Positions 166 through 60,693 of a stretch of DNA of 64,000 bases are shown here, in pieces (within the stretch, counting starts at the first letter, position 1; each line of letters begins with the position of its first letter). The notes beneath the pieces were generated by a model, which had not been told where the DNA came from, searched no databases, and worked only from the letters and a program-made list of their open reading frames with translations. This DNA is from a virus: positions 22,429-86,428 of the IMG/VR virus record IMGVR_UViG_3300003322_000796; one strand, given 5' to 3'. The translations under genes and the position numbers were made by a program.

Positions 166-201
166 TGTCCTGTAGGCCCTGTTCCCGGCGAAGGGGTGGA
201 G
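166..201 (+). promoter_or_regulatory. bipartite element 1 (TGTCC-N19-GAAGGGGTGGAG)
   Basis: First of 15 copies. Left half at 166-170, right half at 190-201, 19 bases between. It follows a hairpin and precedes ATG 209 by 7 bases; the GGAGG at the end of the right half is also the only good ribosome binding site for that gene. Confidence 0.75.
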
Positions 202-208
202 GGAGCGC

Positions 209-2362
209 ATGGACGAGACGGACGAGGACGAGTACTGGCTGTTCCAGCAGGGACAGTGGGGCTCTCGCGTCCAGGAGCCCATGCGGGACCGGACCACCAG
301 GGTCCGGGTCAATCCCTCGCCCGAAGACCGCAAGGTCCGGCGCCGACAGCGGCGGGCCACCGCAGGAGGAGACGTGCAGAAGCGCGCTGAACTCGTCCGC
401 GCCGTGAACAAGGCTTCGAGCCTGGCCGAGCAGGCGCGACTGCTGGACGAGCTGGAGAAGTTCGACCGTGGCGTCCGTGCCGAGGCGGCCCAGGCCCGTG
501 AGCTGGACCTCGCGAACACCGTGGTGGGGGAGACCCTCACCCCGGTCCGCGTCCACGAGCACCACACGGCGGCCACGGACTGGCTCGCCTACGAGGCGAG
601 CGTGGACCCGCAGTGGCAGAACCGCATGGTGGCCGAGGCCGCCGCATGGTTCGGCCGCACCCCCGACTTCGTGAAGGCCGACGCCGAGGAGTTCGGCATC
701 CAGGCGGAGGGCAAGGCCCGCTCCCTGGCCGGTCAGTACGGCACCCGGGCGGAGGCGGCCAAGAAGGCGTTCGTCGACTACGCGGCCTTCCTGCGGGCGC
801 AGGCGGCCTCGGGCCTGGACCAGATCCAGCAGACGATCGACCCCAACAACTCGCCGAAGACCACGCCGCTCCCGACCGAGGTCTTCGACAACTTCGCCCC
901 CGAGGTCGACCCCATCAACGCGGGCGTCTCCGGCACCGAGACCTCCGAGCGCAACCCGCTGCTCCAGGAGATCGTCAACGGCGGCTCCGGAGCGGACTCC
1001 GGCGCCCCGGAGAAGCCCGGCGGCCACTCCACCGGCGACGAGCTGTCCTGGTCCCCTCCGCAGGGGATGCAGCAGGACTCCGCCGCGCCCCTGTCGTACG
1101 GCCAGGGCCCGACCCCCGAGGGCGGCGCCGGTACCGGTCCGCGTCACCAGGGCTCGCTGATCGACGCCCCCTCCCCGGCCATCGGCTACGCCTTCTCGAT
1201 GGACGACTACCTCCAGGCCCGAGCCAAGGCCGGTGGTCAGGGAAAAGAGCGTAAGGAGGCCGCGTCCGGGCTTCCGCAGATCCAGGAGACCGTAGACGCG
1301 AACAACCAGCCCCACGCGCCGAGCCCGATCCCGCAGGACGTGGCCTTCCCGCTGGACGAGGAGTTCCAGCCGGAGTGGACCACCAACGGCACGGGCAACG
1401 CCCAGCCTGCCGCTCCCAAGGCGGCGGTGAAGAAGCAGGCCGACATGTTCGGCGGCTCCGACGCGCCCCACCCGACCCCCACGGGTCTGCCGGTGGCCAA
1501 CAGCCCGGCGACCACTCCGCCCCCGGCATCCGCCGCAGGGGGCCAGGCGGCCGGTAGGAGCGACGCCAGCGCCCACGCGGCCCCGACCTTCGGGGACGAC
1601 TCGGCAAGCGTTCCTGCGCCCGCACAGCAGTACGCCGAGGGCTACTCCTCGGTGGACCAGACGGCCGGTGTCCCGCAGAACGTTCCAGGCTCCGTGGCGG
1701 GCCCCGGCAACGGTGTGACCCACGCGGGGGCCAAGGTCTCCTCGCTGATCGTCACGGCGGCCGAGCGGGAGCGCCCCGACTTCCGCAAGGGCTACGGCTA
1801 CGGCTCCCGCTGGACTCCGGGCACGCGCCTGGTCTCCACGGGCTCGGCGGACTTCGAGGCGGGCCTGTACGCGGGCATCTCCGACAACCCCGAGCACCAG
1901 CGAGCGTTCGTGGAGGCGCACCGTACGGCCTCGGTGAACTGGCCGAAGCTGGGTCAGCGGGTGGACACGCACAAGGCGGTCACGGCGCACGTGGTCTCCA
2001 AGAACGAGGTGCCCTCCAACGGGATGTACCTCACCGCGTCCACTTCGATGGACCTGCCGACCATGGCGCCCAACACCTCTCCGGCCGCCGACGGCTCTAC
2101 GCCGATCAACGGCCCCGGGCGCCCCGGTCCCCTGGCGGGAGAGCAGAACGCGGCAGCTCCGGGCGGCCCGAGCCCCTACAACGGCGCGGAGCCCTTCGGT
2201 ACGCCGGTCGTCCCCGGTGTGGGACAGTCTCCCGCGAGTCCCGCAGACGCCCTGATCGGCGGCGGGCACATGTCGACCACCAACCAGGCCATGGGCAAGC
2301 AGGCCCTGGCCTTCCGTCAGCGTGTCCAGGCGGGTCTGCTGGCCGAGCGTCAGGGAAAGTGA
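209..2362 (+). CDS. large Pro/Ala-rich head-associated protein, function unknown
   Basis: 717 residues, starting at ATG 209 behind GGAGGG. Residues 1-60 are acidic then strongly basic. About 60-210 is helical and charged, and the rest is long Pro/Ala/Gly linker with short conserved islands. Two internal repeats begin near residues 208 and 351 (SGLDQIQQTIDPNN and SGLPQIQETVDANN). A compact-looking C-terminal part (about 510-620) contains RPDFRKGYGYGSRW. The same transcription unit carries two more unknown proteins, all upstream of the portal. The SGTET string recurs in the scaffold protein. An internal head or ejected protein is plausible but not shown; I do not recognise the family. Confidence 0.75.
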   Translation: MDETDEDEYWLFQQGQWGSRVQEPMRDRTTRVRVNPSPEDRKVRRRQRRATAGGDVQKRAELVRAVNKASSLAEQARLLDELEKFDRGVRAEAAQARELDLANTVVGETLTPVRVHEHHTAATDWLAYEASVDPQWQNRMVAEAAAWFGRTPDFVKADAEEFGIQAEGKARSLAGQYGTRAEAAKKAFVDYAAFLRAQAASGLDQIQQTIDPNNSPKTTPLPTEVFDNFAPEVDPINAGVSGTETSERNPLLQEIVNGGSGADSGAPEKPGGHSTGDELSWSPPQGMQQDSAAPLSYGQGPTPEGGAGTGPRHQGSLIDAPSPAIGYAFSMDDYLQARAKAGGQGKERKEAASGLPQIQETVDANNQPHAPSPIPQDVAFPLDEEFQPEWTTNGTGNAQPAAPKAAVKKQADMFGGSDAPHPTPTGLPVANSPATTPPPASAAGGQAAGRSDASAHAAPTFGDDSASVPAPAQQYAEGYSSVDQTAGVPQNVPGSVAGPGNGVTHAGAKVSSLIVTAAERERPDFRKGYGYGSRWTPGTRLVSTGSADFEAGLYAGISDNPEHQRAFVEAHRTASVNWPKLGQRVDTHKAVTAHVVSKNEVPSNGMYLTASTSMDLPTMAPNTSPAADGSTPINGPGRPGPLAGEQNAAAPGGPSPYNGAEPFGTPVVPGVGQSPASPADALIGGGHMSTTNQAMGKQALAFRQRVQAGLLAERQGK

Positions 2363-2369
2363 GGAACAG

Positions 2370-3672: not shown

Positions 3673-4155
3673 GTGATCAGCGACGGGAGCCGGATCGAGT
3701 ACGTCGGCCTGAAGACGAAGACCCTGGATCCGGGGGACCAGGGCTCCGTCCTCGTCGTGTCCGGCCACAACGCCCACGTGCAGTGGCGGACCGGCTCCCT
3801 CGCGGGCAAGGTCACCCTGGAGGACACCGACGATCTCCGCCCCCTGGGAAGCCGTCAGGGGGCCGTGGAAGCGGCTCTGGACGACTCGCTGGAGGTCTCG
3901 GGCGTCGGGACCGTCACAGCCCGCCAGATCTACGACGAGGGCGGTTCCAGCGCCCTTCTGAACGCCATGGCCGACGCAGGAAAGCTCGCCTCCTTCCAGG
4001 ACATCGCCGAGGAGGCGCTGACCCTGGTCGCCTCCCGTCTGCGCTCCTCGGACTCCTTCACGGCCATGGCGTCGCATCTGGACGACGACGAACGCGAGGA
4101 TCTGCTGAGGACCGCGTCCGCCGCTCTCATCCGGGACGCCTTCACACCCTCCTGA
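3673..4155 (+). CDS. small hypothetical protein
   Basis: 160 residues from GTG 3673 with AGGAGA in front. The N-terminal 60 residues read like a small beta domain (IEYVGLKTKTLDPGDQGSVL...HVQWRTGSLAGKVTL), and the remainder is helical and acidic. No family is recognised. It is the last gene of the first transcription unit; a second bipartite element follows two bases after its stop. Confidence 0.7.
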   Translation: MISDGSRIEYVGLKTKTLDPGDQGSVLVVSGHNAHVQWRTGSLAGKVTLEDTDDLRPLGSRQGAVEAALDDSLEVSGVGTVTARQIYDEGGSSALLNAMADAGKLASFQDIAEEALTLVASRLRSSDSFTAMASHLDDDEREDLLRTASAALIRDAFTPS

Positions 4156-4191
4156 TGTCCTCACGGCCTGATCTCCGCCGAAGGGGTGGAG
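4156..4191 (+). promoter_or_regulatory. bipartite element 2 (TGTCC-N19-GAAGGGGTGGAG)
   Basis: Left half 4156-4160, right half 4180-4191, spacer 19. ATG 4198 is six bases downstream and its ribosome binding site GGAGGT overlaps the right half. Confidence 0.75.
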
Positions 4192-4197
4192 GTGGTC

Positions 4198-9801: not shown

Positions 9802-12800
9802 ATGCCCAAGCACCTCACCACCTCGGACGCGGAGGACTTCATCGCGGTCACCGAGAAGGGCGCCAACAACGGCGTCGCCCCTCTCGGTTCGGACGGCAAG
9901 GTCCCCAGCTCATTCATCCCGGGTCTCGGTGACAGCGCGGTCACCTCCGTCAACGGGCATTTCGGCAACGTCGTCCTGACCGCCTCCGACCTGGGAGCGG
10001 TCCCCACGGCCCAGATCGGGGTGGCCAACGGTGTCGCCCCTCTGGACTCCACCGCGCGCCTGCCGGTGAACCGGCTCCCCCTGGCCGCCGTGCAGTCCGT
10101 CAACGGCTACTCGGGCCCCTCTGTGACCCTGACGGCAGCCGACCTGGGCTCCATCACCCAGGCCACGGCCGACGGCCGGTACATGCGCCAGGACTCCTTC
10201 GTCTACAACGCCAAGGAGCACGGGGCCGTCATCAACGGCACCACGGACGACGCCCCCGCGATCAACACCCTGCTGAGCACCTCTCCGGCCGGATCTGTGA
10301 TCCTGCTGCCGCCGGGAGACGTGGCGATCAACTCGCCGATCGTCGTGCCGCCGGGCAAGACCCTCATGGGCATGCACACCAACCTGATGAAGGTCCCGGG
10401 TCTGTACGACCCGGCGGTGCGCATCAAGCCCCTGGCGACCTTCACCGGCGCTGCGGCGATCCTCTTCCTGGACCAGCCCACCGGTGGCTACACGGCCATC
10501 TCGGGTGAGCAGCGCCTGATGAACATCATGATTCACGGTGCCGTGGGCCCGTCCGGACTGGACGGCATCCAGGCCAAGGGCAACATCCAGAACGTGGTCA
10601 TGCACGACGTCACTGTGCGGGACATGACCGGCAACGGCATCTACACCGGCGTGAACGCCGGGGTCTACCCGTACTCCTGGCGCCTGCACCGGGTGATGCT
10701 GGACAACAATCACGGCCACGGCGCCATGTTCCAGCTCATGACCGACCTGACGATGATCGACTGCCAGGCGATCGGGAACTGGGCCAACGGCTTCGTGCTG
10801 AACAACCTGGCCAACAGCCAGCTCAGCTCCTGCCGGGCCGAGTGGAACGGCAACCACGGCTACTACGTCACCGGCTCCTGGGGCACCGGCACGGGCTCCG
10901 GCGGCATGCAGATGTCGAACTGCGGCACCGACCGCAACGGCTGGCACGGCGTGTTCATCGACGCGACCGGCAACGCGCCGATCGTCCTCTCCAACCTGAT
11001 GACGCGCCGGGACGGCCGCAACGGAGGCGCCGGAGGGGGTGCCTACGCGGGCGTGTGCGCGGCGGCGAGCACGGTTCCGGTCACCATCGGAGACTGGATC
11101 CAGTACCCCGGCACGGACGACAACGGAACGGGCACCAACAGCCCGCAGTACGGAGGCTCCTTCAGCGGGAACACCTCCGTCCAGATCGAGAACGCCTACC
11201 TGCACGCGAACACGGCAGGCCTGTACGACGACGGCACCAACACGTCCTTCCAGCTCGGTGCGAACATCGTCTACGCGACCGGCCCCACCACCGCCCCCGT
11301 ACGCACCCAGGGCGGCGGAGTCGTGCGGACCGGCTCGCTGGTCCGCAACGTCATGGACTACGGGGCCAAGGCGGACGACTTCACCGACGACTCCGGAGCC
11401 TTCCAGGCGGCCATCGACGCCTCTTCCCAGGGCGACGTGGTCTACGTGCCGCCGGGCAAGTACCGGCTCGCCAACACGGTCATTCTGACCCTGGGCGTGA
11501 CCCTCCGGGGCGGAGGCTGGAGCCCGCACTTCGTCCCCCGGACGAACATGACCGAGGCCTATCTCCGGCCAGGTATCGGCAACTTCCTGGGCACCGAGCT
11601 GATCCGGGTGGACCCGGCCCCCGTCGGCGGCTCGTACCTCGACTCGGCCCTCGGAGGCGGACCCCGGATCGAGGGTCTCGCCCTGAGCGGCAGGTCGACG
11701 ACCAACATCACCGGCAACAACATCACCGGCATCAAGGTCTCGGCGGGCGTGAAGGACGTCCAGGTCCGCAAGGTCTCGATCTGGCAGTTCACCGGAGACG
11801 CGATCCGCACCGACGACGGCGCGGGCATGGTTTTCGATCAGGTCGTGTGCTCCACGAACGGCGGGGTCGGCTTCAACATCGTCTCGATCACCTCGGGGAC
11901 CGCCGGGGCGACCGACGTCGACATGATCAACTGCTACTCGCAGGGCAACGGCGGGGACGGCTACGTGCTGGCCAACCCCAACGCCGTGACGATGACCGGC
12001 TGCCGCTCGGAGTTCAACGCGGGCCACGGCTACACCTTCACCGGCCTGAACTACTCGCTGGTCATGACCTCCTGCAACACCGACCGGTCCGGGAAGAACG
12101 GCTTCAACTTCCTCACCCTGGACGGCGGCAAGCCTCCGCTGCTCATCGGGTGCCAGGCCAAGCGGGACGGAAGCAGCGCCGGAACCTGGGCGGGCTTCAA
12201 CTTCCAGGGAACCAACTCCGGCACCCAGGCCCCGGGCGGCATCCTCCAGGGATGCAGCGCCTACGTGGGCCGCAACGACGACAACTCCGGCACCCGGTCT
12301 CCCGCGTACGGCGTGCAGACCCTGTTTGCCCGCCGGGTCCAGATGTCCGGCGGCTGGATCGAGGGCACCACCGGTCCGTACAACGACACCACGGTGGCCA
12401 TCAGCAAAACCTCCGGGATCGTCCAGGTCACGATCGACCCTTCCACGGGCACCGGGACCATCTCCAACTCCGACCGGATGGACATCAACGGCTCCCCGGG
12501 GTCGACCCGAGCCCTGAGGTTCTTCAGCCGGGGATCCGGGCAGCGCTGGGAGGTCCGGGCGAACTCCACCTCGGAGGCGGGCTCCAACGCCGGGTCGGAC
12601 TTCGACATCTCCCGATGGAGCGATGCCGGAGCGGAGATCGACGTCCCCTTCCGGATCACCCGCTCCACGGGCGTGGTGCGCTTCACCAAGCCCCCGACCC
12701 TCAATTCGACGTCATTCACCACACTGGGCTGGATCAGCGTCAAGGACTACGGCGCGCTGGGTGACGGCACCACGGACGACACCACGGCCATCCAGGCCGC

Positions 12801-14349
12801 TCTGACGGCCTGCCCGGTCGGCGGAGTGGTCTACATGCCCCTGGGCGTGTATCGCACCAGCGCGCCCCTCCTCGTGCCTCCCTACGTGACCCTGACGGGC
12901 ACGCACGGCGGCGGTGAGGCGCAGAGCACGTCCTCTCCCACCCCGTCGTGCATCAAGCCCCTGGGGAGCTTCACCGGCGCCGCTGTGGTCCAGGTGGTGG
13001 ACCAGCAGATCGGCGGTTACGCGACCATCTCGTCCGAGGTGAAGATCGAGAACCTCACCATCAACGGCTCCTCGCTGCCCACCGGGTCCGTGGCGGGTAT
13101 CCAGATGAAGGGGCAGATCCAGCACATCACCATCCGGGACGTGCAGGTCCGGCAGGTCACCGGCAACGGGTTCGACACCGCCTACAACCTGAGCGCCCCT
13201 CCCGGCCCCCAGGCGCCCTTCTGCCTCCACTGGGAGCGGCTCTCGGCCCTGTGGTGCGGCGGGACAGGGTTCGCCCTCAACAACTCCACGGACAGCTACT
13301 TCGGGGACTGCTACGCCCTGGGGTGCAGCAGTTGGGGCTGGTACGTGGCGGGCGCCAACGGCTCGACGTGGATCGGCTGCCGCGCCGAGTGGTCCGGCAC
13401 CGACGGGTTCTTCCTCGCCACGAACACCGCCGTGCAGACTTTCGTGGGGTGCTCCACGGACCGCAACGGGCAGCACGGGTTCAACATCGGCAGCTCCACC
13501 AGCACCGGCACGATCGTGCTGTCCGGCTGCCGGTTGACCCGGGACGGCCGCAGCTCCACCACCTCCGGGTACGCCGGTCTCAAGGTCAACACGACGACCC
13601 GGAAGGTGTTCGCGGAAGGGCTGATCGTCACCACCGGCCGTGACGACGACGGCACGACCGGCAACCTGACTCCGCAGTACGGCGTGTCCGTCTCCGGATC
13701 CTCGTACGTCGTGGTGGCCTCGGGTGACGTCAACGGTGTGACCACCGCCTGGAACGACGGCGGCGGCAACACCACCCTCCTGCGGGGAGGGATGGTCACA
13801 GGCTCGGACATCACCTCGTGGAACTGGGCCGGGACCGCGATCAGCGTGGCGGCCACCGCCGGGTCGATCGTCCTCCAGTCCAGCGTCACGGGCGATTCCC
13901 AGCAGCGGATGACGGTCGGTGCGGACGGCAAACTGAGCTGGGGATCCGGTACCGCCGTGCCGGACACCAACCTGTACCGCAGCGCTGCGGCCACCCTGAA
14001 GACGGACTCGTTCTTCTCGATGGGCGGATCCGGCCAGGCCTCCGGCGCCTTCTCGGTCTTCACCGGGGCGGCCAAGGCCCTGATCGCGGGAACCGCCGGG
14101 GGCGGTCTGGCGGTCAAGGAGGGCACCAACGCCCGCTCCGGAGTGGTGACCCTGTCCGGCGGCACGGCCACGGTGTCCAACACCAGCGTGACGGCCACGA
14201 CCAGGATCCAGTTGACCTCCCAGGCCGACGGCGGCACTCCGGGATGGCTGCGGGTGTCGGCACGGACGGCAGGAACTTCGTTCACCATCACGTCCAGCTC
14301 GGCCTCGGACACCTCGACCGTGGCGTACTTCATGGTGGAGCCCGCGTAG
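9802..14349 (+). CDS. tail spike with three pectate-lyase-like beta-helix modules
   Basis: 1515 residues. The MPKHLTTSD attachment region and fibre repeats (1-125) match the preceding gene. Three Pectate_lyase_3-type right-handed beta-helix modules follow. Their entry motifs are near residue 133 (KEHGAVINGTTDD), 515 (MDYGAKADDFTDDSGAFQAAI) and 977 (KDYGALGDGTTDDTTAIQAAL). Each then shows repeated N-x-F, C-x-A-E-W-x-G and D-R-N-G-x-H-G-F turns. The last 130 residues are a beta-rich tip. Such modules bind or cleave capsule or wall polysaccharide; I cannot see which catalytic acids are active. Three complete modules in one chain is unusual. It starts directly at the previous stop (TAG ATG). Confidence 0.85.
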   Translation: MPKHLTTSDAEDFIAVTEKGANNGVAPLGSDGKVPSSFIPGLGDSAVTSVNGHFGNVVLTASDLGAVPTAQIGVANGVAPLDSTARLPVNRLPLAAVQSVNGYSGPSVTLTAADLGSITQATADGRYMRQDSFVYNAKEHGAVINGTTDDAPAINTLLSTSPAGSVILLPPGDVAINSPIVVPPGKTLMGMHTNLMKVPGLYDPAVRIKPLATFTGAAAILFLDQPTGGYTAISGEQRLMNIMIHGAVGPSGLDGIQAKGNIQNVVMHDVTVRDMTGNGIYTGVNAGVYPYSWRLHRVMLDNNHGHGAMFQLMTDLTMIDCQAIGNWANGFVLNNLANSQLSSCRAEWNGNHGYYVTGSWGTGTGSGGMQMSNCGTDRNGWHGVFIDATGNAPIVLSNLMTRRDGRNGGAGGGAYAGVCAAASTVPVTIGDWIQYPGTDDNGTGTNSPQYGGSFSGNTSVQIENAYLHANTAGLYDDGTNTSFQLGANIVYATGPTTAPVRTQGGGVVRTGSLVRNVMDYGAKADDFTDDSGAFQAAIDASSQGDVVYVPPGKYRLANTVILTLGVTLRGGGWSPHFVPRTNMTEAYLRPGIGNFLGTELIRVDPAPVGGSYLDSALGGGPRIEGLALSGRSTTNITGNNITGIKVSAGVKDVQVRKVSIWQFTGDAIRTDDGAGMVFDQVVCSTNGGVGFNIVSITSGTAGATDVDMINCYSQGNGGDGYVLANPNAVTMTGCRSEFNAGHGYTFTGLNYSLVMTSCNTDRSGKNGFNFLTLDGGKPPLLIGCQAKRDGSSAGTWAGFNFQGTNSGTQAPGGILQGCSAYVGRNDDNSGTRSPAYGVQTLFARRVQMSGGWIEGTTGPYNDTTVAISKTSGIVQVTIDPSTGTGTISNSDRMDINGSPGSTRALRFFSRGSGQRWEVRANSTSEAGSNAGSDFDISRWSDAGAEIDVPFRITRSTGVVRFTKPPTLNSTSFTTLGWISVKDYGALGDGTTDDTTAIQAALTACPVGGVVYMPLGVYRTSAPLLVPPYVTLTGTHGGGEAQSTSSPTPSCIKPLGSFTGAAVVQVVDQQIGGYATISSEVKIENLTINGSSLPTGSVAGIQMKGQIQHITIRDVQVRQVTGNGFDTAYNLSAPPGPQAPFCLHWERLSALWCGGTGFALNNSTDSYFGDCYALGCSSWGWYVAGANGSTWIGCRAEWSGTDGFFLATNTAVQTFVGCSTDRNGQHGFNIGSSTSTGTIVLSGCRLTRDGRSSTTSGYAGLKVNTTTRKVFAEGLIVTTGRDDDGTTGNLTPQYGVSVSGSSYVVVASGDVNGVTTAWNDGGGNTTLLRGGMVTGSDITSWNWAGTAISVAATAGSIVLQSSVTGDSQQRMTVGADGKLSWGSGTAVPDTNLYRSAAATLKTDSFFSMGGSGQASGAFSVFTGAAKALIAGTAGGGLAVKEGTNARSGVVTLSGGTATVSNTSVTATTRIQLTSQADGGTPGWLRVSARTAGTSFTITSSSASDTSTVAYFMVEPA

Positions 14350-14491: not shown

Positions 14492-14494
14492 CCC

Positions 14495-14530
14495 TGTCCT
14501 CCCCGCTCTTGCTCCCCGGAAGGGGTGAGA
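14495..14530 (+). promoter_or_regulatory. bipartite element 3 (TGTCC-N19-GAAGGGGTGAGA)
   Basis: Left half 14495-14499, right half 14519-14530. It lies between the membrane peptide and the polyvalent gene; ATG 14544 is 13 bases on, with its own GAGGAGG site. Confidence 0.75.
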
Positions 14531-14543
14531 CCGAGGAGGACGC

Positions 14544-18817: not shown

Positions 18818-18872
18818 CGCTCCAACCTTTCTTGGAGTACCATGGGTCCATACCGACTCCTCAGGAGGATCC

Positions 18873-19085: not shown

Positions 19086-19092
19086 GGGAGCC

Positions 19093-19293: not shown

Positions 19294-19404
19294 CAGTACG
19301 CGCTTGCAACCAACGATTCCGTGACTAAGCCCCGGGACCGAATTTAAAAACGGCTCCGCTCAACCCTGCGGAGCTGTGACTCACAGTCAGTAGCAGGCCC
19401 TATG

Positions 19405-19419
19405 TGGTGTTGAACACCA
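19405..19419 (+). promoter_or_regulatory. perfect palindrome, possible operator
   Basis: TGGTGTTGAACACCA: seven-base arms around one G, flanked further out by AGGCC (19395-19399) and GGCCT (19424-19428). It overlaps the -35-like TTGAAC of the possible promoter, the usual place for a repressor site. Confidence 0.4.
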
Positions 19420-19534: not shown

Positions 19535-19537
19535 TGC

Positions 19538-19573
19538 TGTCCTAGGAGCAGCCAGGGCCGAGAAAGGTTGAAG
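19538..19573 (+). promoter_or_regulatory. bipartite element 4 (TGTCC-N19-GAAAGGTTGAAG)
   Basis: Left half 19538-19542, right half 19562-19573 with two changes from consensus. It heads the lysis cassette: leader peptide at 19606, holin-like gene at 19658. Confidence 0.65.
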
Positions 19574-19605
19574 GGCCACCATTTAGAGCGATGAAGGAGG
19601 CAGCC

Positions 19606-21097: not shown

Positions 21098-21100
21098 TCC

Positions 21101-21136
21101 TGTTCGAGACCCTTCGAGCCCTTTGAAGGGATGGAG
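21101..21136 (+). promoter_or_regulatory. bipartite element 5 (TGTTC-N19-GAAGGGATGGAG)
   Basis: Variant copy: left half 21101-21105, right half 21125-21136. GAGACCC (21107-21113) and GGGTCTC (21135-21141) pair around it. It heads the endolysin. Confidence 0.65.
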
Positions 21137-21163
21137 GGTCTCGGCAGGAACCAAGGAGCGCAC

Positions 21164-22473: not shown

Positions 22474-22476
22474 TGC

Positions 22477-22512
22477 TGTCTCCCCTCAGCCTTCTCCCCG
22501 GAAGGGGTGGAG
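22477..22512 (+). promoter_or_regulatory. bipartite element 6 (TGTCT-N19-GAAGGGGTGGAG)
   Basis: Left half 22477-22481, right half 22501-22512. It heads the protease gene; ATG 22521 is eight bases on and its GGAGGTG site overlaps the right half. Confidence 0.75.
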
Positions 22513-22520
22513 GTGCGTCG

Positions 22521-25223
22521 ATGCTCAAGTACGCCAGTGCACAGGTCATGACCGCGACCCTGATTCCCCAGGAACTCAGGGGCCGTGAACTGCGCCGGTT
22601 CGCTCACCGGCATCACTTCGAGTACGACGTGCGCCCCGGCTACCTGTACGTCCGCTCGCGGGCGATCTCCAGCCGCTGCAACGACAACTTCGACGAGTTC
22701 CCGGCCGAAGAGCTGGAGAAGGCCTACGCGACCTTCAAGGGCAAGCCGGTCTTCGTGAACCACGTCAACGACGATCACCGCCGGGCACGGGGCGTGATCA
22801 TCGACGCGGCCCTCCACAAGGACGCCAACCGCGACGGGACGCGGGACTGGTGGGTGGAGGTCCTCATGGAGGTGGACGCGGTCCGCTTCCCCAAGCTGGC
22901 GAAGGAGATCCTGGCAGGCAACATCGCGCGCACCTCCATGGGCTGCGACGTCGCCTTCTCGGTCTGCTCGGCCTGCAACAACAAGGCCACCACCCCGGCG
23001 GAGTACTGCTCCCACATCCCCGCGTCCAAGGGGATGATGCTCTACCGCCGGACGGCCTCCGGCCACAAGGTCGGGGAGATCATCCGCGAGACCTGCTACG
23101 GCCTGAAGTTCTTCGAGAACAGCCTCCTGGTAGAACCCCCGGCGGACCCCACGGCGCACTTCCTGGGCGTGGACACGCGGGGCCTCCAGACGGCGGCCAT
23201 GAAGAAGGGCGCTCCCTTCGCGGGCTACGAGGACTTCGACGCGTGCACGTCGGAGAACTCCGACAAGAACGACCCAGAGGCGTACTGCGGTGAGATCAAG
23301 CACCGCACCGAGGACAAGAAGGTCTCCAAGTTGCTGACCGATCTCTTCGTTACGGCGGCCGAGGCTCAGGACCCCAGCGAGCACCCGTGGTTCGGGGAGA
23401 CGGGCCTTCACCACAACCACATCGTGAACCACTGGGAGCAGGCGACCGACGAGGAGAAGGCGCAGGGCAAGCGCTGGTACCCGGACGCGCACCTGGTGGC
23501 CAAGCAGATCGCCAAGCTCGACCCGAACATCACCGACGAGAAGGAGGCCGCGCACAAGGGCGCCGGTGTCCTCTCGGCGTACTCCCCGCAGCAGAACTGG
23601 TGGGCCAACCAGCACAACGCCGCGCGGTCCTTCCACGAGCAGCGGGCTCTCGGCAAGGGCGAGGGCCTGTTCATCATGGGCAGCCACCAGAGGGCCGCCC
23701 AGCGCATCATGGACGGTGAGGACTCCCAGAAGGTCCTCAAGGGCCCGAAGACGGCCGACTTCGCCCACCTGATCGAGCACGGCGGCTACAAGCCCCAGAG
23801 CGACGAGGACGCGGCGGCGGGCAAGCCCAAGGAGCACTCGGACAAGGTCGTCGTCGACCGGCACGCCCTCTCGGTGGCCGCCGGACGCCGCCTGAACGCC
23901 GACGACGTCAAGGGCTTCAAGTCCCAGAGCCGTCCCCACTACGAGCACGTGGCGGGCATGTACCGCAAGGCGGCGGCCGTGATCTCCGACCGTGAGGGAC
24001 GCGAGGTCCCGCCGCACGAGGTGCAGGCCGTCACCTGGCTGACCCGGCAGCGCCTGAACAAGGACGAGGAGATCTCGACCCCGTCCGGCAAGGGCCGCCA
24101 GACCATGCAGCAGAACCAGCGCAAGCAGTGGCACGAGCTGTCCAAGGAGCACACGCCGGGCCTGCACGAGGAGCCGCCGAACTCCCACGTGGTCCTGCCG
24201 CCTCAGCCGAAGCAGGCTTCGAGGGGCGTGGTGCCCCCTTTCGGTGGTGAGCCGGTGACGGCTCTGCGCAGGACCGCGTCCCTGAAGACCCGGGCGTACG
24301 GCGAGCAGAAGGCCCCGATGGACGTGGACACCCTCCGGGAGGACGCGTGCCCGGTCTGCGGTGACCGCGACACCTTCGACGGGGCCCAGTGCCAGGTCTG
24401 CTCGTACGTCGCGCCCCCGAAGATGTTCCAGGACCCCGACCTGGAGAAGGCCCGGCAGATGGATCTGCGGAAGGACATCGCAGACTTCCAGGACCCGAGC
24501 AACCCCAACCAGGTCGGTCCCGACGGACAGCCCGTCGACCCCACGGCCCTGGACGCGGATGGCAACCCGGTCGACCCGGACATGGCCGACCAGGGGGTCC
24601 AGCCCGGCATGCTCCCCGGTGAAGTGCAGGCCGAGGTGCAGCCGGACGACGGGTCCCCCGTGGATCCGGCCCAGATGAGCCAGGACGGCCAGATCCCTGA
24701 AGAACTGGGGGCTCCGGTCAACCCGTCTCTGATCGGTCCGGACGGCCAGCCGCTCGCGGGAGGCCAGCAGATGGTCGGCCCGGACGGGATGCCGATCGGT
24801 CCCCAGCCGCTTCCGGCCGGTGCGACCACCAACATGGGCCAGCCGTTCACCCCGGGCCCGAACATGCCCGAGGGACCCGGCGACCCCGAGGGCCCGGAAG
24901 GGCCGCTCTCGCCCGAGGAGCTGGCTGAGGACGGCCAGCCGGAGGACGAGTCCGACGGTGCACCGCCCAACCCCATGGCGGGCCAGGGAGCCCCGGGGAC
25001 GCCCGGGGACGGTGTTCCGGACCTGATGTGCCCCGGCTGCGGCTTCACGGCCGACGCCACCCAGCCCACCTCGATCGACATGGACACCCAGACGCTCCCG
25101 AACGCCGGGGTCGCCATGCAGGACGGTGTCCAGGCCGGAGACATCTGCCCGAACTGCGGCCAGGCCCAGCTCCTGAGTCCGGCCGAGGTACAGGGCGAGA
25201 CGCCGGTCCCGCTCCCTGTCTGA
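22521..25223 (+). CDS. prohead maturation protease fused to an uncharacterised D-R-H domain
   Basis: 900 residues from ATG 22521 (the open frame extends upstream from 22473 without a start site). Residues 1-210 have the herpesvirus/T4 gp21-type assembly protease pattern: FVNHVNDDH with H81 and NIARTSMGCDV with S139 as likely catalytic residues. A Cys cluster (CSACNNK...YCSHI) follows. This protease would cut scaffold and capsid proteins during head maturation. Residues about 287-546 form a second globular domain (GAGVLSAYSPQQNWWANQHNAA, then VVDRHALSVAAG with D446-R447-H448). About 590-900 is Pro/Gly linker with two CxxC ribbons. The scaffold gene follows. The extra domain is far beyond normal protease length. 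Confidence 0.75.
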   Translation: MLKYASAQVMTATLIPQELRGRELRRFAHRHHFEYDVRPGYLYVRSRAISSRCNDNFDEFPAEELEKAYATFKGKPVFVNHVNDDHRRARGVIIDAALHKDANRDGTRDWWVEVLMEVDAVRFPKLAKEILAGNIARTSMGCDVAFSVCSACNNKATTPAEYCSHIPASKGMMLYRRTASGHKVGEIIRETCYGLKFFENSLLVEPPADPTAHFLGVDTRGLQTAAMKKGAPFAGYEDFDACTSENSDKNDPEAYCGEIKHRTEDKKVSKLLTDLFVTAAEAQDPSEHPWFGETGLHHNHIVNHWEQATDEEKAQGKRWYPDAHLVAKQIAKLDPNITDEKEAAHKGAGVLSAYSPQQNWWANQHNAARSFHEQRALGKGEGLFIMGSHQRAAQRIMDGEDSQKVLKGPKTADFAHLIEHGGYKPQSDEDAAAGKPKEHSDKVVVDRHALSVAAGRRLNADDVKGFKSQSRPHYEHVAGMYRKAAAVISDREGREVPPHEVQAVTWLTRQRLNKDEEISTPSGKGRQTMQQNQRKQWHELSKEHTPGLHEEPPNSHVVLPPQPKQASRGVVPPFGGEPVTALRRTASLKTRAYGEQKAPMDVDTLREDACPVCGDRDTFDGAQCQVCSYVAPPKMFQDPDLEKARQMDLRKDIADFQDPSNPNQVGPDGQPVDPTALDADGNPVDPDMADQGVQPGMLPGEVQAEVQPDDGSPVDPAQMSQDGQIPEELGAPVNPSLIGPDGQPLAGGQQMVGPDGMPIGPQPLPAGATTNMGQPFTPGPNMPEGPGDPEGPEGPLSPEELAEDGQPEDESDGAPPNPMAGQGAPGTPGDGVPDLMCPGCGFTADATQPTSIDMDTQTLPNAGVAMQDGVQAGDICPNCGQAQLLSPAEVQGETPVPLPV

Positions 25224-25252
25224 TCCAGCCCCAGGCCCCGTAAGGGGTGAAG
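25217..25252 (+). promoter_or_regulatory. bipartite element 7 (TGTCT-N19-TAAGGGGTGAAG)
   Basis: Left half 25217-25221 overlaps the last codons of the protease gene; right half 25241-25252. It heads the scaffold gene at 25300. Confidence 0.75.
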
Positions 25253-25299
25253 ACCACCGCCCACGCCCGCGTGAGCACCGACCAGAGGAAGCACATCTC

Positions 25300-26309: not shown

Positions 26310-26328
26310 GTTCTCCAGGCCTTGATCC

Positions 26329-26364
26329 TGTCTTTCCGGGTGCGAGTCCACAGAGAGGGTGAGG
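26329..26364 (+). promoter_or_regulatory. bipartite element 8 (TGTCT-N19-GAGAGGGTGAGG)
   Basis: Left half 26329-26333, right half 26353-26364 with two changes from consensus. It heads the decoration/major-capsid operon and has the longest leader (74 bases). Confidence 0.65.
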
Positions 26365-26380
26365 AGACCGTCTCGATCCG

Positions 26381-28443: not shown

Positions 28444-28480
28444 GAAGCCCCCGGCACCCCCCCCGCCGGGGGCTTCTTCC
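28444..28480 (+). terminator. strong intrinsic terminator-like hairpin
   Basis: Twelve-base stem GAAGCCCCCGGC (28444-28455) with GCCGGGGGCTTC (28465-28476), loop of C residues, then TTCC. It isolates the HTH control region from the next unit. The adjacent bases 28361-28443 hold nothing else I can identify. Confidence 0.75.
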
Positions 28481-28516
28481 TGTGCTACCGCCCGTGACTC
28501 CGCATAAGGGGTGAGA
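28481..28516 (+). promoter_or_regulatory. bipartite element 9 (TGTGC-N19-TAAGGGGTGAGA)
   Basis: Left half 28481-28485 (one change), right half 28505-28516. It follows a terminator and heads the minor head unit at 28542. GGGGT/ACCCC can pair around the right half. Confidence 0.65.
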
Positions 28517-28541
28517 GAACCCCAGTTTCTGAGGAGTCACC

Positions 28542-31323: not shown

Positions 31324-31354
31324 CACATCTGTTGGTAGCAGCGCAGGGTCCTCC

Positions 31355-31390
31355 TGTCGACCCTCCGGGATCACCCGGGAAGGGGTGAGG
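31355..31390 (+). promoter_or_regulatory. bipartite element 10 (TGTCG-N19-GAAGGGGTGAGG)
   Basis: Left half 31355-31359, right half 31379-31390. It heads the connector unit at 31416. GGGGT (31383-31387) can pair with ACCCC (31391-31395) just after it. Confidence 0.7.
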
Positions 31391-31415
31391 ACCCCCACGA
31401 GAGGAACGGGAGCGG

Positions 31416-33421: not shown

Positions 33422-33460
33422 CGTCAGCCCCTCCCGTATCCAGTCCGGGAGGGGCTGACG
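33422..33460 (+). terminator. 15-base-pair hairpin, terminator-like
   Basis: CGTCAGCCCCTCCCG (33422-33436) pairs perfectly with CGGGAGGGGCTGACG (33446-33460), loop of nine. No U tract follows, but its place directly before bipartite element 11 matches the other terminators. Confidence 0.6.
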
Positions 33461-33462
33461 CA

Positions 33463-33498
33463 TGTCCGGATCAGGCCGAGTCCGGAGAAGGGGTGAAG
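33463..33498 (+). promoter_or_regulatory. bipartite element 11 (TGTCC-N19-GAAGGGGTGAAG)
   Basis: Left half 33463-33467, right half 33487-33498, three bases after a 15-bp hairpin. It heads the spike gene (GTG 33518). Confidence 0.75.
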
Positions 33499-33517
33499 AC
33501 GAGCCCCTGGAGGACGC

Positions 33518-35287
33518 GTGTCGTACACGGTCACGATCAAGCCAGGCCTGTCCGGCGTCGCTCTCCCCGGAGGAGTCATCGCCGAGGGCGGACAGACCTA
33601 CACCCTGACCGACGAGCAGTACCTGATGCTGAGCCCGACGGCGGCAGCAGCCCTGTTCTCCAACGTCAGCCACACGGGCGCCGGATCCAGCGCCTGGGAG
33701 TTCGACCCGACCGCGTACGGGGCCAAGGGCGACGGCCAGATCGTGGTGGACGGAGCCATGAACTCCGGCTTCCCGATCCTCACCTGCGCCACCTCCACGC
33801 CATTCGACCCGGACACCGACGTCAACAAGTACGTGCTGGTCAAGGGCGCAGGAGCGACCGGCATCACGAGCCACATCGCCCGCATCCAGAGCGTCACCGA
33901 CAGCGGCCACGTGGTCCTCACGGCGAACGCGGCCACCACGGTCACCAACGCCGTGGTGCTCTTCGCCACCGACGACACGGCGGCCTTCCAGGCGGCCATC
34001 GACGCGGCCTTCGAGTACGGGCTCAGCCACAGCTACACGGGCACTCTGGACATCCCGGCGGCCCCGGGGCTCTTCTACGGCATCGCGGGCCCGCTGGTGA
34101 CCGGCGGCACCACCAAGGGCAACTCCCAGCTCACGATCCCGATCGTTCCGGCCACGGGGAACAAGTTCTCCTTCACGATCAAGGGCCCGGCCTCCGGAGC
34201 GAACGTCCAGCACTGGCAGCAGGTCGTCCCGCAGACCGGCGGAGCCACTCTGGTCTCCTTCTTCGTGCACGCCTCGGCCCCGGCCCAGATCACGAGCATC
34301 AACAACGGCGGCAACTCGGCCGTGATCGGCGGGCCCTCCCAGCCAGGCGGATACGGCGTGGCCCCGGGTGTCTTCAGCAACGTCAACGTCACCGTCGAGA
34401 ACGTCTCGATCCTCACGTCCCACAGTGCGTACGGCCTGACCCTGAGCGCCCTGGACTTCTCCGGCATCGCCAACGCCTCGCTGAAGCACTTCGCGTACGG
34501 CACAGCGGGCTCGGTGACCGGCACGGACTACCAGAACCCCGGAGTCTTCGCGACGGGCCTGTCCATCGGCGTCCTGATGCCCGCGAGCGGCAACAACGAC
34601 CTGTGCGTGGTCGAGGACGTCACCTGCCACGGCGGCTACACGTACGGCTTCTTCGCCACCGAGCACTTCGACGGCAACAACATCCGGATTCTGTACTGCT
34701 GGGCGGCCTTCTGCCCGGTTGGCAGCTACTACTCCTCGGTAGGCGCCACCCACGCGATCGTGGCCACGATGCTCTCGATCGAGGCCTGCACCTACCTGGT
34801 CTACATCATCGGATCCGGCTCCGGAGGCATCGGTCCGTTCATCCACCTCAGGATCGACACCGAGACCTCCACCCCCAGGTTCGGCGACAACAACGGCGGC
34901 ACGGGCCTGGCGAACGCCAAGGGCGACGTGGTCCTGACGGGCCTGTACACCGCCGCGAACGTCACCCTGGACAACCCGGTCGGCTTCGACATCCTGGACG
35001 GCCAGAAGTCCTACCCGGCGATCTCGGTCTCGGCGAACTACTCGGTGAAGACCGCCGACGAGGTGGTCCTGGTGGACTGCACCGGCGCAGCCCGGACCGT
35101 CACCCTTCCCACGGCCGTCGGGCGCAACCGGCGCATTCTGCTGATGAAGGTGGACGCCAGCGCGAACAACCTCGTGGTGGCTACCACTTCCAGCCAGACC
35201 GTCAACGGCGCGGCCCCGGCGGCCATCACCTCCCAGTGGGCCTCCCGCGAGTACATCCCCGTCGGAGGCAACTGGGTCGCCCGCTGA
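33518..35287 (+). CDS. tail spike, single beta-helix (Pectate_lyase_3-like)
   Basis: 589 residues from GTG 33518 (TGGAGGACGC). Residues 1-60 are a small attachment domain (SYTVTIKPGLSGVALPGGVIAEGGQTYTL). The beta-helix begins FDPTAYGAKGDGQ near residue 66 and has FATDDTAAFQAAIDAAFEYG near 149, the Pectate_lyase_3 entry pattern. About 60 C-terminal residues form a tip domain (VVLVDCTGAARTVTLPTAVGRNRRILLMKVDA) widely used on phage fibres. It probably recognises or degrades wall or capsule glycans. It is alone in its unit. Confidence 0.8.
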   Translation: MSYTVTIKPGLSGVALPGGVIAEGGQTYTLTDEQYLMLSPTAAAALFSNVSHTGAGSSAWEFDPTAYGAKGDGQIVVDGAMNSGFPILTCATSTPFDPDTDVNKYVLVKGAGATGITSHIARIQSVTDSGHVVLTANAATTVTNAVVLFATDDTAAFQAAIDAAFEYGLSHSYTGTLDIPAAPGLFYGIAGPLVTGGTTKGNSQLTIPIVPATGNKFSFTIKGPASGANVQHWQQVVPQTGGATLVSFFVHASAPAQITSINNGGNSAVIGGPSQPGGYGVAPGVFSNVNVTVENVSILTSHSAYGLTLSALDFSGIANASLKHFAYGTAGSVTGTDYQNPGVFATGLSIGVLMPASGNNDLCVVEDVTCHGGYTYGFFATEHFDGNNIRILYCWAAFCPVGSYYSSVGATHAIVATMLSIEACTYLVYIIGSGSGGIGPFIHLRIDTETSTPRFGDNNGGTGLANAKGDVVLTGLYTAANVTLDNPVGFDILDGQKSYPAISVSANYSVKTADEVVLVDCTGAARTVTLPTAVGRNRRILLMKVDASANNLVVATTSSQTVNGAAPAAITSQWASREYIPVGGNWVAR

Positions 35288-35289
35288 CC

Positions 35290-35325
35290 TGTCCGGAAGA
35301 GCATCAGGCCGGTGAAGGGGTGAAA
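35290..35325 (+). promoter_or_regulatory. bipartite element 12 (TGTCC-N19-GAAGGGGTGAAA)
   Basis: Left half 35290-35294, right half 35314-35325. The right half lies in a perfect 10-bp stem, GGTGAAGGGG (35311-35320) with CCCCTTCACC (35329-35338). The right arm abuts the ribosome binding site of GTG 35348. Confidence 0.75.
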
Positions 35326-35347
35326 GGACCCCTTCACCGGAGGCGAC

Positions 35348-40921: not shown

Positions 40922-40925
40922 TTGC

Positions 40926-40961
40926 TGTCCACTCCGGGACCTCACCTCGGAAGGGGTGGAA
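40926..40961 (+). promoter_or_regulatory. bipartite element 13 (TGTCC-N19-GAAGGGGTGGAA)
   Basis: Left half 40926-40930, right half 40950-40961. It heads the sheath/tube unit (TTG 41000). A second GGAGGGGTGGAA at 40984-40995 lacks the left half and serves as the ribosome binding site. Confidence 0.75.
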
Positions 40962-40999
40962 GCTCGATCTAGCCACCGGTCCCGGAGGGGTGGAACACC

Positions 41000-51723: not shown

Positions 51724-52530
51724 GTGTACCAGTCGGTCATGGCCAAGCGGCAGCAGACGGGATCCTCGGGAACCGGCTTCGCCTTCGTCCTGGTGGAGAT
51801 CAAGGAGGTTCACCCGGACAAGAACATCTGCGTGGCCAGGGACGTCGACCTGAACTCCAGCTACTACGAGCTGGGCCTGAACAAGCGCGGGGAGACCGCG
51901 TGGCCCCAGGTGGGGGACCGCTGGATCATCGACCGTTCACTGGGGCACTGGGCCCTGTCGGCGAAGGTGACCGACACCGAGGCCCCCAAGTTCACCGGGA
52001 ACTTCTCCACGATGGACCCGGACCTCCTGCGGCTTGCGACCCTCCTGAAGGGCCTCGGGCTCATCCAGGACGACACGACCGCCGGTACCGTCCCGGCGGT
52101 CACCGGCTCCAAGGCGCAGATCACCCCGGCGGTCCAGCAGATCATCTCGATCCTGGACGCCAGGGGGGTCCTGGACGACCAGACGACGGCCGCCACGGTC
52201 ACCCCGGAGGTCTGGCACGACGCGGTCCTGGAGACCGGCTGGACGCCCTGGACGACCGGCACACGGCCCCGCTACAAGCTGAACTACGACAACACCGTCA
52301 CGATCGAGGGACGGGCGATCCCGCCGGGCTCCGTGGCCTCCGGCGACCTGATGTTCACCATGGACTCGGGCTTCGCCCCGCCGGTGACGAAGTACTTCAC
52401 CACCATGATCGGCAATGGCGTGGTGGGCAACGTGGCGGTCGGCACGGACGGGACTCTGAAGATCTTCGACTTCGGATCGAACACCGTCGCCCGCGTGCTC
52501 TTCCACTTCCGGTACTCGAAGCTGAGCTGA
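51724..52530 (+). CDS. baseplate spike / central puncture protein
   Basis: 268 residues from GTG 51724 (GAGG six bases ahead; ATG 51739 is an alternative). The N-terminal 85 residues read like an OB fold (FAFVLVEIKEVHPDKNICVARDVDLNSSYYELGL...WPQVGDRWIIDRSLGHWALSAKV), as in gpV/gp5 spikes. A linker and helical stretch (LRLATLLKGLGL, VQQIISILDARG) follow. The C-terminal beta domain is a fibre-tip-like module. It lies before the gp25 and J genes. Spike or hub-associated fibre are both possible. Confidence 0.55.
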   Translation: MYQSVMAKRQQTGSSGTGFAFVLVEIKEVHPDKNICVARDVDLNSSYYELGLNKRGETAWPQVGDRWIIDRSLGHWALSAKVTDTEAPKFTGNFSTMDPDLLRLATLLKGLGLIQDDTTAGTVPAVTGSKAQITPAVQQIISILDARGVLDDQTTAATVTPEVWHDAVLETGWTPWTTGTRPRYKLNYDNTVTIEGRAIPPGSVASGDLMFTMDSGFAPPVTKYFTTMIGNGVVGNVAVGTDGTLKIFDFGSNTVARVLFHFRYSKLS

Positions 52531-52566
52531 TGTCCGGCCCACCTCCTCGCCGCTGAAGGGGTGAGG
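52531..52566 (+). promoter_or_regulatory. bipartite element 14 (TGTCC-N19-GAAGGGGTGAGG)
   Basis: Left half 52531-52535, right half 52555-52566. The right half lies in the loop of a 9-bp stem, CACCTCCTC (52540-52548) with GAGGAGGTG (52564-52572). The right arm is the ribosome binding site of ATG 52576. Confidence 0.75.
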
Positions 52567-52575
52567 AGGTGGCCG

Positions 52576-59871: not shown

Positions 59872-59880
59872 GGAGAGACC

Positions 59881-60657
59881 GTGCGCGCCCACTTCACCCG
59901 GCCCGTCACCGACGAGCAGGGAGACCTGCTGCCGAACGTTCAGGTCTCCCTGTTCGAACCGGCCACCACCACGCTCATCAGTCAGGTGGTGTACTCCACG
60001 GACACCGGCAGCAATGTGCTGTCGAACCCGTACGTCTCCTCCACGGGCATCATCGACGTCTACCTGGACCAGCCCACCCGCGTGCGCATCGGCATCGTCC
60101 AGGGGAACCTGCCGATGCAGTTCTACGAGGACGTGGACATCCTCGCGGCCGGGTCCGACTCGGCTCACACGGGCTCCGGCCCCTTCTCCCTCGTCATCGG
60201 CAACGGGGCGGCGAGCGCCGGGGACTCCGCCGTGGCCCTGGGCAACAGCGCCTCGGCTGCCGGGAACAACGCGGTGGCCGTCGGCCCGACCACCAACGGC
60301 CTCGGGGACTTCTCCACGACGGTGGGACCGGCCGCCACGGTCCAGAACGCCTCGGGTACCGCCGTGGGCCGCAGCGCCTCTGTGACGGGCGATTCCGGCG
60401 TGGCACTGGGATACGGTGCCTCGGCCTCCGGGACGTCCTCCACGGCCCTGGGAGAGGGCTCTACGGCCGCCTGGGCCCACTCGACGGCCATCGGTGCCGA
60501 CGCGGTGGCGGACGGGGACAACCGGATCGTGATCGGTACGGCCGCCGACCGCACGGTGATCCCCGCCGGGTCCGGCATCGTCATGACGGCTCCGGGAGGC
60601 CAGGAGTGGCTGATCACGATCAACGACGACGGGAGCCTGAACACGGCCGCGATCTGA
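59881..60657 (+). CDS. fibre with YadA-head-like left-handed beta-roll repeats
   Basis: 258 residues from GTG 59881 (AGGAGAGACC). N-terminal attachment domain (RAHFTRPVTDEQGDLLPNVQVSLFEPATT) shared with the next two genes. Residues about 100-215 are tandem 14-16-residue repeats of the YadA stalk/head type (SAVALGNSASAAGNNAVAVG, SGVALGYGASASGTSSTALGEGS). The tip is short. YadA-like rolls trimerise; here they form the shaft of a host-binding fibre. Confidence 0.75.
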   Translation: MRAHFTRPVTDEQGDLLPNVQVSLFEPATTTLISQVVYSTDTGSNVLSNPYVSSTGIIDVYLDQPTRVRIGIVQGNLPMQFYEDVDILAAGSDSAHTGSGPFSLVIGNGAASAGDSAVALGNSASAAGNNAVAVGPTTNGLGDFSTTVGPAATVQNASGTAVGRSASVTGDSGVALGYGASASGTSSTALGEGSTAAWAHSTAIGADAVADGDNRIVIGTAADRTVIPAGSGIVMTAPGGQEWLITINDDGSLNTAAI

Positions 60658-60693
60658 TGTCCCGGCCTGATCCAGTCCCGTGAAGGGGTGAAG
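60658..60693 (+). promoter_or_regulatory. bipartite element 15 (TGTCC-N19-GAAGGGGTGAAG)
   Basis: Left half 60658-60662, right half 60682-60693, immediately after the fibre stop. It heads the next fibre (GTG 60710, GAGGAGG). Confidence 0.75.

What the first reader, a model, noticed from the sequence alone, without database searches (positions are those of the whole stretch)
166..60693. Fifteen copies of a 36-bp bipartite element (TGTCN, exactly 19 bases, KAAGGGGTGRAG) that divide the phage into transcription units
Seen directly: left-half starts at 166, 4156, 14495, 19538, 21101, 22477, 25217, 26329, 28481, 31355, 33463, 35290, 40926, 52531 and 60658. In all 15 the distance from TGTCN to the right half is the same 19 bases, while the spacer itself is not conserved. 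The T-G-T trio is invariant. All copies are intergenic and on the coding strand, and each heads a functional block (head, lysis, protease, scaffold, capsid, connectors, spike, neck, sheath, baseplate, fibres). Seven follow a strong terminator-like hairpin directly. Rigid spacing of two short conserved boxes is what an RNA polymerase/sigma or activator reads. Two models are open: both boxes form a phage-specific late promoter, or TGTCN is the promoter core and the G-rich box is a leader element at fixed distance from the transcript start. In copies 1, 2, 6 and 14 the ribosome binding site overlaps the right box, which favours the second model. Phage-specific promoters are known from phiC31, and start-associated repeats from cluster K mycobacteriophages, but I know of no description of this one.
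Basis: partly seen in the sequence, partly recalled or inferred. Interest (0 to 1): 0.95.

Follow-up and report, generated by a model that had tools for sequence, protein, structure and literature searches.

The report
Late-gene start signals of a phage
Fifteen copies of one 40-base DNA signal sit in front of the groups of late (virion-building) genes of a large phage, probably of Streptomyces, and very probably tell RNA polymerase where to start; related phages carry the same signal, and a small phage protein shaped like part of a sigma factor is a candidate for its reader.

Summary
Fifteen copies of a rigid bipartite element lie in the window; a 155,979-bp record of the same phage species has the same fifteen on the late strand plus one weak opposite-strand match. 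The element spans 40 bp, TCCTGTC-N12-AGNCC-N3-GAAGGGGTGAAGG, and its spacer is partly conserved. Conservation stops sharply at both ends and no shared RNA structure is supported. Relatives carry it in the same register: 151 forward against 6 reverse matches in 80 IMG/VR loci, 8 on Streptomyces plasmid pRLB1-9.1, and diverged forms in Myrna, Phabba, Alice, Skog and E3. Best reading: a phage-specific late promoter in which both boxes take part and transcription starts near T31/G32, inside the right box; no 5' end has been mapped. A candidate reader lies outside the window: a one-domain sigma-region-4 protein found in all 17 records of at least 123 kb and predicted to fold like a -35-binding domain. 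No sigma region 2 and no T4 gp55 was found. Against the pairing: 11 of 18 records with the protein have no clear element set by the model used.

The parts
163..202 (+). late element copy 1 (T0 at 166), after a strong hairpin; ATG at position 43
4153..4192 (+). copy 2, directly after a TGA stop; ATG at position 42
14492..14531 (+). copy 3, shortly after a TGA; ATG at position 49
19535..19574 (+). copy 4, after a strong hairpin (16-bp stem)
21098..21137 (+). copy 5, before the endolysin-like gene (ATG 21164)
22474..22513 (+). copy 6, after a strong hairpin, before a gene with a head-maturation-protease match; GGAGG at positions 32-36, ATG at 44
25214..25253 (+). copy 7, contains the stop codon of the upstream gene
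26326..26365 (+). copy 8, 24 bases after a strong hairpin; next large gene downstream is the major capsid gene 26962-27951
28478..28517 (+). copy 9, after a strong hairpin (15-bp stem)
31352..31391 (+). copy 10, 38 bases after a hairpin
33460..33499 (+). copy 11, after a strong hairpin (15-bp stem)
35287..35326 (+). copy 12, shortly after a TGA stop
40923..40962 (+). copy 13, before the tail sheath gene 41000-42568
52528..52567 (+). copy 14, directly after a TGA stop; ATG at position 45 of a 141-codon reading frame
60655..60694 (+). copy 15, directly after a TGA stop; GTG at position 52

Best explanation
The element is a phage-specific late promoter. Host RNA polymerase, re-targeted by phage proteins, recognises the left box TCCTGTC as a -35-like site and the right part (CC-N3-GAAGGGG) as a -10/discriminator, and starts transcription near the pyrimidine-purine step T31/G32, about 32 bases downstream of T0. 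Each copy starts a new late unit just after a terminator or stop codon. Where the gene follows at once, its Shine-Dalgarno sequence GGAGG begins at about +1, so the leader is only about 11 bases. The phage's small sigma-region-4-like protein is the likely reader of the left box. Shown: element, spacing, location, conservation, presence and predicted fold of the sigma-4-like protein. Inferred: promoter function, start site, pairing of protein with element. Unknown: what does the work of sigma region 2.
For: Rigid two-box site on the late strand, confined to the late block. Conservation bounded at -3 and +36, with little outside. Exact gap in 52 of 57 box pairs found over gaps 14-27 in 27 loci, 0 on the reverse strand. 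Ahead of homologous genes in relatives (119 of 142). Follows hairpins in 7 of 15, stop codons in the other 8. No shared RNA pairing. Y31-R32 in 138 of 141 unique elements, at a -35-like distance from the left box. GGAGG in the right box in 15 of 20 near-start elements against 4 of 93. Sigma-4-like protein in 18 of 23 records, including all 17 of at least 123 kb; 8 of those 17 gave rows to the profile. Model pLDDT 92.5; best structural neighbours are sigma region 4 (1or7_A Z 7.0, rmsd 3.1, 68 aligned; 2h27_A on -35 DNA Z 6.7, rmsd 4.2, 71 aligned). On pRLB1-9.1 element and protein lie on one replicon.
Against: No transcript 5' end is known. The right box is G-rich and resembles no -10 element I know. 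No sigma region 2 and no gp55. Of 18 records with the sigma-4-like protein taken together (19 searched in both), only 7 (G001-G006, G008) have 3 or more R1 matches; the other 11 have 0-2, and in 5 of them (G011, G012, G014, Alice, Finch) none at E<=1. G007's protein is close (159.8 bits) yet its single match has E 0.87. The cluster C form was found only with matrices seeded by eye. Foldseek E-values are 0.013 or worse, and the tool warns that Z under 8 may mean only a common arrangement. 8 or 9 of the 20 near-start elements are the same orthologous protease site. Six further script-picked starts at positions 30-37 would lie inside the box; I take them as script errors.
Confidence: 0.5

Rival explanations
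1. One reading: the left box is the promoter core (-10-like), the transcript starts near positions 10-17, and the right box is a leader element at fixed distance from the start, acting in RNA or in the initially transcribed DNA.
For: Ribosome-binding sites overlap the right box, so its end is probably transcribed in those genes; A16-G17 is enriched and could be a start.
Against: Little is conserved upstream of the left box down to -45, so no -35 is seen. The left box resembles no -10 known to me. No shared RNA structure. The right box keeps its register to the left box, not to the start codon (distance 42-83 in the 13 window copies scored).
Confidence: 0.25
2. Repressor or silencer sites like cluster A stoperators: asymmetric sites between genes, oriented with transcription, bound by a repressor in the lysogen.
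For: Asymmetric, oriented, between genes; a relative occurs as a Streptomyces plasmid, so a quiescent state is plausible.
Against: Late block only; 40 bp with two boxes instead of 13-14 bp; diverged forms also in Myrna, Phabba, Alice and Skog; sites sit just after terminators or stops and before ribosome-binding sites.
Confidence: 0.08
3. RNA processing or translation-enhancing element in the mRNA, with transcripts started elsewhere.
For: Purine-rich right box near ribosome-binding sites.
Against: Seven copies follow strong hairpins; no shared RNA structure; the left box keeps rigid spacing; distance to the start codon varies.
Confidence: 0.08
4. Oriented DNA-maintenance sites (partition, packaging or recombination boundary sequences).
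For: The homologue of the gene after copy 6 is annotated ParB-like in pRLB1-9.1; copies mark module borders.
Against: The element is not a palindrome; late strand and late block only; ahead of a gene in all 15 window copies.
Confidence: 0.04

Closest known systems
T4 late promoters with gp55 and gp33 (review PMC2988020, abstract and passages seen)
   Same: Many short promoters ahead of late genes, read by host polymerase with small phage subunits, one of them sigma-like.
   Different: T4 has only an 8-bp TATA box at -10 and no conservation at -35; gp55 (phrog_234) was not found here. Here two G+C-rich boxes keep rigid spacing and the factor found is region-4-like.
Cluster A mycobacteriophage stoperators (review PMC9262239, passages seen)
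   Same: Asymmetric sites, mostly in short intervals between genes (orientation with transcription is recalled).
   Different: 13-14 bp repressor sites throughout the genome, not confined to the starts of late units.
Start-associated sequences of cluster K mycobacteriophages (recalled, no call)
   Same: Repeated short sequences ahead of genes.
   Different: Recalled as lying at a near-constant short distance from the start codon; here the distance varies.
Split sigma factor SigO-RsoA of Bacillus subtilis (recalled, no call)
   Same: A separate region-4-like protein.
   Different: Its region-2 partner is known; none was found here.
Cluster C / Ceeclamvirinae phages Myrna, Phabba, Alice, and Gordonia phage Skog
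   Same: Major capsid about 60% identical; same-register element in diverged form, about CCCTGTG-N20-GAAGAGGTRGAGG; syntenic sigma-4-like gene in Alice and Skog.
   Different: Right box less G-rich; base after TGT usually G, not C. No such element is annotated in the stretches read.

Membership tests
Phage-specific late promoter (functional class) | lies ahead of late genes, on their strand, and not in the rest of the genome | tested here: met
   15 on the late strand of the 155,979-bp record, 1 weak opposite-strand match
Phage-specific late promoter (functional class) | transcripts start at it | not testable with these tools
   no RNA data
Host sigma-A promoter | TTGAC and TANNNT hexamers with 16-18 bp spacer | tested here: not met
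   0 sigma-70-type sites in window 18000-36000; 0 TTGAC-N-TANNNT matches on either strand of the 86,428-bp record
T4-type late promoter | only a TATA box at -10 | tested here: not met
   two boxes, no TATA
T4-type late promoter | gp55-type sigma (phrog_234) | tested here: not met
   0 of 12 relatives at E<=1; T4 itself matches (2.5e-70) as control
T7-type polymerase promoter | single-subunit polymerase gene (PF00940) | tested here: inconclusive
   0 of 17 records, but no control rang
Sigma region 4 domain (the protein) | matches the family profile | tested here: met
   PF08281 in 14 of 17 records at E<=0.001, over the curated cut-off in 5
Sigma region 4 domain (the protein) | -35-binding helix-turn-helix fold | tested here: met
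   model pLDDT 92.5; TM-score over the target 0.73 for SigD region 4 (3vfz_A) and 0.72 for SigC region 4 (2o8x_A), E 0.29 and 0.42; 48 of 50 listed VIA rows are sigma chains or sigma-4 chimeras by description, Z at most 7.0
Complete sigma-70 factor | region 2 | tested here: not met
   PF04542 in 0 of 17 records even at E<=10; controls ring
Cluster K start-associated sequence | near-constant distance to the start codon (definition recalled) | tested here: not met
   distance 42-83 in 13 scored window copies
Cluster A stoperator | bound by the phage repressor | not testable with these tools
   no binding data

The most novel reading that the evidence does not exclude
A promoter class shared by large phages of Streptomyces, Mycobacterium, Gordonia and Rhodococcus: a one-domain sigma-4 protein, without a sigma-2 partner of any known family, re-targets host polymerase to a G+C-rich two-box promoter whose right box also contains the transcript start and, in some genes, the ribosome-binding site.
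Probability: 0.32. Interest if true: 0.78.

Novelty: new variant of a known kind. Interest (0 to 1): 0.62.

Why it matters
A 2022 review of mycobacteriophages says that few late promoters have been characterised and that further investigation is warranted (PMC9262239, passages). This finding gives a precise late-promoter candidate, its full set of 15 sites in one phage, diverged forms in named cultured phages, a Streptomyces plasmid that carries both element and candidate factor, and so a direct test of late control in a family with 216 capsid-related records in the phage collection.

Tried and rejected
RNA element: stems no longer than with shuffled spacers (5.51 against 5.41) and no compensatory pairs among the strongest dependencies; RNAalifold 0 pairs. 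Single copies do fold (z below -3 at 35290 and 52531, 2 of 15), but not in a shared way.

Host sigma-A promoters: no matches. Sigma region 2, gp55: none found. T7-type polymerase: none found, control silent.

De novo motif search by simple EM in L042, L066, L076 and L088 did not yield an element. Gapped-word enrichment recovered the element in a validation set and another promoter-like sequence in sister lineages.

The first fold with five sequences was poor (pLDDT 57.4); with 13 sequences it was good. phmmer against PDB sequences: 0 matches.

Literature: ten searches of the open PMC library only. Search listings were seen, and passages of four papers: PMC6722414 (it names RLB1-9 but not pRLB1-9), PMC2988020, PMC9262239, PMC3029335 (the one 'promoter' passage is not about cluster C). 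No description of this element or of cluster C late promoters was seen there; subscription papers are not covered, so novelty is not proven. The E3 genome paper was not seen.

Dropped or limited before counts. One search used 120 of the 151 hits (score at least 14, flanks present, under 75% identical over 80 bases). One search found a start for 119 of 120, chosen by script and not by annotation: 26 at positions 30-50 (6 of them at 30-37), 93 later. It picked none at 38-42, but window copy 2, not in that set, has ATG at 42. Model R1 was built from the first 55 of 69 listed elements, including elements of G001-G005 and G008, so those records are not independent tests. One search compared three-frame translations, not annotated genes. 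Several matches lie inside genes and are probably chance. Some of the 80 loci are near-duplicates (L023/L025, L036/L037, L085/L087 show the same hits).
Full report
WHAT IS THERE. The window is positions 22429-86428 of an 86,428-bp virus record. Its capsid protein is about 60% identical to those of cluster C mycobacteriophages (Myrna, Phabba) and of Rhodococcus and Gordonia phages. At 81% it has relatives in two Streptomyces assemblies; a 7-kb contig binned with a gammaproteobacterium is closer (88%), possibly mis-binned. Plasmid pRLB1-9.1 of Streptomyces sp. RLB1-9, 154,158 bp and circular, encodes an HK97-fold capsid protein and many genes of unknown product. The host is probably Streptomyces (inference).

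THE ELEMENT. All fifteen copies are real and have identical spacing. Leave-one-out matrix scores are 17.7 or higher; the next best forward site in the record scores 1.1 and the best reverse site 3.7. Numbering T of TGT as 0, 120 non-redundant elements from the window's species and relatives give T-3 C C T0 G T C3, then A16 G17, C19 C20, then G24 A A G G G G T G A A G G36. Information is near zero from -45 to -13 and from 37 to 74, and weak between -12 and -4 apart from a T at -6. In 27 loci (L010-L035 and L082), TGTC and KAAGGGGTG occur 52 times at the exact gap, 3 times one base longer and twice at other gaps, and never on the reverse strand; the right box alone occurs 66 times forward and 5 times reverse.

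WHERE IT OCCURS. In the same-species record of 155,979 bp, 15 late-strand matches reproduce the window's set; one weak match is on the other strand. Other records have 16 (G002), 15 (G003), 17 (G004), 11 (G006), 7 (G008) and 3 (G005), each all on one strand, that of their capsid gene. These numbers include weak ones up to E 1, and elements of all these records except G006 helped to build the model. A further record, G019, has 15 on one strand. Among 80 loci around capsid relatives, 39 have at least one forward match over 10 bits: 151 forward against 6 reverse, counting L010, which is the window's species. Outside L010, 119 of 142 elements lie ahead of a gene homologous to one behind a window element. 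Plasmid pRLB1-9.1 has 8 at E<=0.1, all on the strand of its capsid gene.

DEEP CONSERVATION. In Myrna, Alice and Skog, sequences ahead of the tail sheath gene and others show CCCTGTG, the same distance, and GAAGAGGTRGAGG-like boxes (by eye). A matrix trained without Myrna and Phabba, on four by-eye sequences of Alice and Skog plus the window's fifteen, found 10 forward against 1 reverse sites over 10 bits in 44 kb of Myrna and 9 against 0 in 45 kb of Phabba; some lie within genes and may be chance. CCTGT-N21-GAAG/C peaks at the expected gap in Myrna, Alice and Phabba together (11 forward, 0 reverse; next best gap 6); these phages are related, so the sites are not independent. In E3, 2 of 7 AAT(A/T)GG(T/C) sites have TGTC at the exact distance (counted by eye). 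R1 itself gave no match in Alice or Finch at E<=1, and 1-2 in Myrna, E3 and Skog.

HOW IT PROBABLY WORKS. Late strand, late block, unit borders after hairpins (7 of 15) or stop codons (the other 8), and a rigid two-box DNA site without shared RNA structure together point to a promoter. The start site can be bounded by inference. Where a start codon was picked at positions 40-50, 15 of 20 elements hold GGAGG at positions 30-40, against 4 of 93 with later starts. The mRNA should therefore include position 32 onward, unless read-through transcripts explain the sites. Eight or nine of those 20 are the same orthologous protease site. A start at T31/G32 (pyrimidine-purine in 138 of 141) would place the left box at about -35 and satisfy this bound. 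It is not shown.

CANDIDATE READER. A small protein with a sigma region 4 signature (PF08281) occurs in 14 of 17 records. With a family profile it is found in 18 of 23, including all 17 records of at least 123 kb; 8 of those 17 had given rows to the profile, 9 had not. In Alice, E3, Finch and Skog it lies behind a Holliday junction resolvase, an exonuclease and a phrog_2769 protein, as in the window's species. E3 and Finch annotate it as sigma-like, and pRLB1-9.1 as 'sigma-70 region 4 domain-containing'. The predicted structure (110 residues from an assumed start codon, pLDDT 92.5, pTM 0.82) resembles sigma region 4: sigma-E 1or7_A Z 7.0, rmsd 3.1, 68 aligned; sigma-E region 4 on -35 DNA 2h27_A Z 6.7, rmsd 4.2, 71 aligned. 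Foldseek E-values are weak, 0.013 at best. Region 2 and gp55 were not found.

AGAINST THE PAIRING. Nineteen records were searched with both queries. Seven have 3 or more R1 matches (G001-G006, G008), and all seven encode the protein. Of the other twelve, eleven encode it too: G007, G009, G011-G014 and the five named phages. Myrna, Alice and Skog among these show the diverged form; for the others either promoter and factor diverged together or the protein serves something else. Loci of G007, G011, G012, G013 and G014 carry other promoter-like sequences.

VERDICT. A real, conserved late promoter candidate, not seen described in ten searches of an open library (listed under Tried and rejected). 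Phage-specific late promoters are a known kind; this sequence class and the one-domain factor make it a new variant.

Noticed in passing
L065:11891, L086:12446, L069:13717, L071:11048 and others: Sister lineages carry a different promoter-like sequence, about TACAGCTTTTCTTGATAAGCTG, followed within a few bases by a start codon, as if nearly leaderless and sigma-A-like.
   Followed up: partly
L088:10653, 12151, 13150, 17423: Repeated TTCCTTGCTATNNTG followed by ATG about six bases later, an extended -10-like sequence whose spacing would put the start codon near +1.
   Followed up: no
L156, L153, L154: Plasmid pRLB1-9.1 and two contigs of 152,548 and 156,949 bp in Streptomyces assemblies carry a relative of the capsid gene. 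A sigma-4-like gene is on pRLB1-9.1 and, by coordinates, on the MH60 contig; in A0642 it is in the same assembly, contig identity not checked. Relatives may live as phage-plasmids.
   Followed up: partly
L152 (7,041 bp): A contig binned with a gammaproteobacterium has a capsid gene 88% identical to the window's and 4 forward element-like matches over 9 bits; possibly mis-binned.
   Followed up: no
G001 (155,979 bp), contig ends: The distance between the copies matching 40926 and 52531, counted across the contig ends, is about 570 bp shorter than in the window, so the genome is probably circular or permuted and the contig slightly incomplete.
   Followed up: no
L108:11522-12202 (-): A phrog_2769 protein of unknown function is encoded directly before the sigma-4-like gene in the six genomes looked at (G001, Alice, E3, Finch, Skog, pRLB1-9.1); a candidate for the missing sigma partner.
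   Followed up: no
L112:4001-4642: The sigma-4-like reading frame stays open for about 100 codons past the conserved domain, overlapping the next gene in another frame; similarly open in L101, L114 and L115.
   Followed up: no
window 9802-14349: A 1,515-residue tail protein ends in a stretch that matches a polysaccharide deacetylase family.
   Followed up: no
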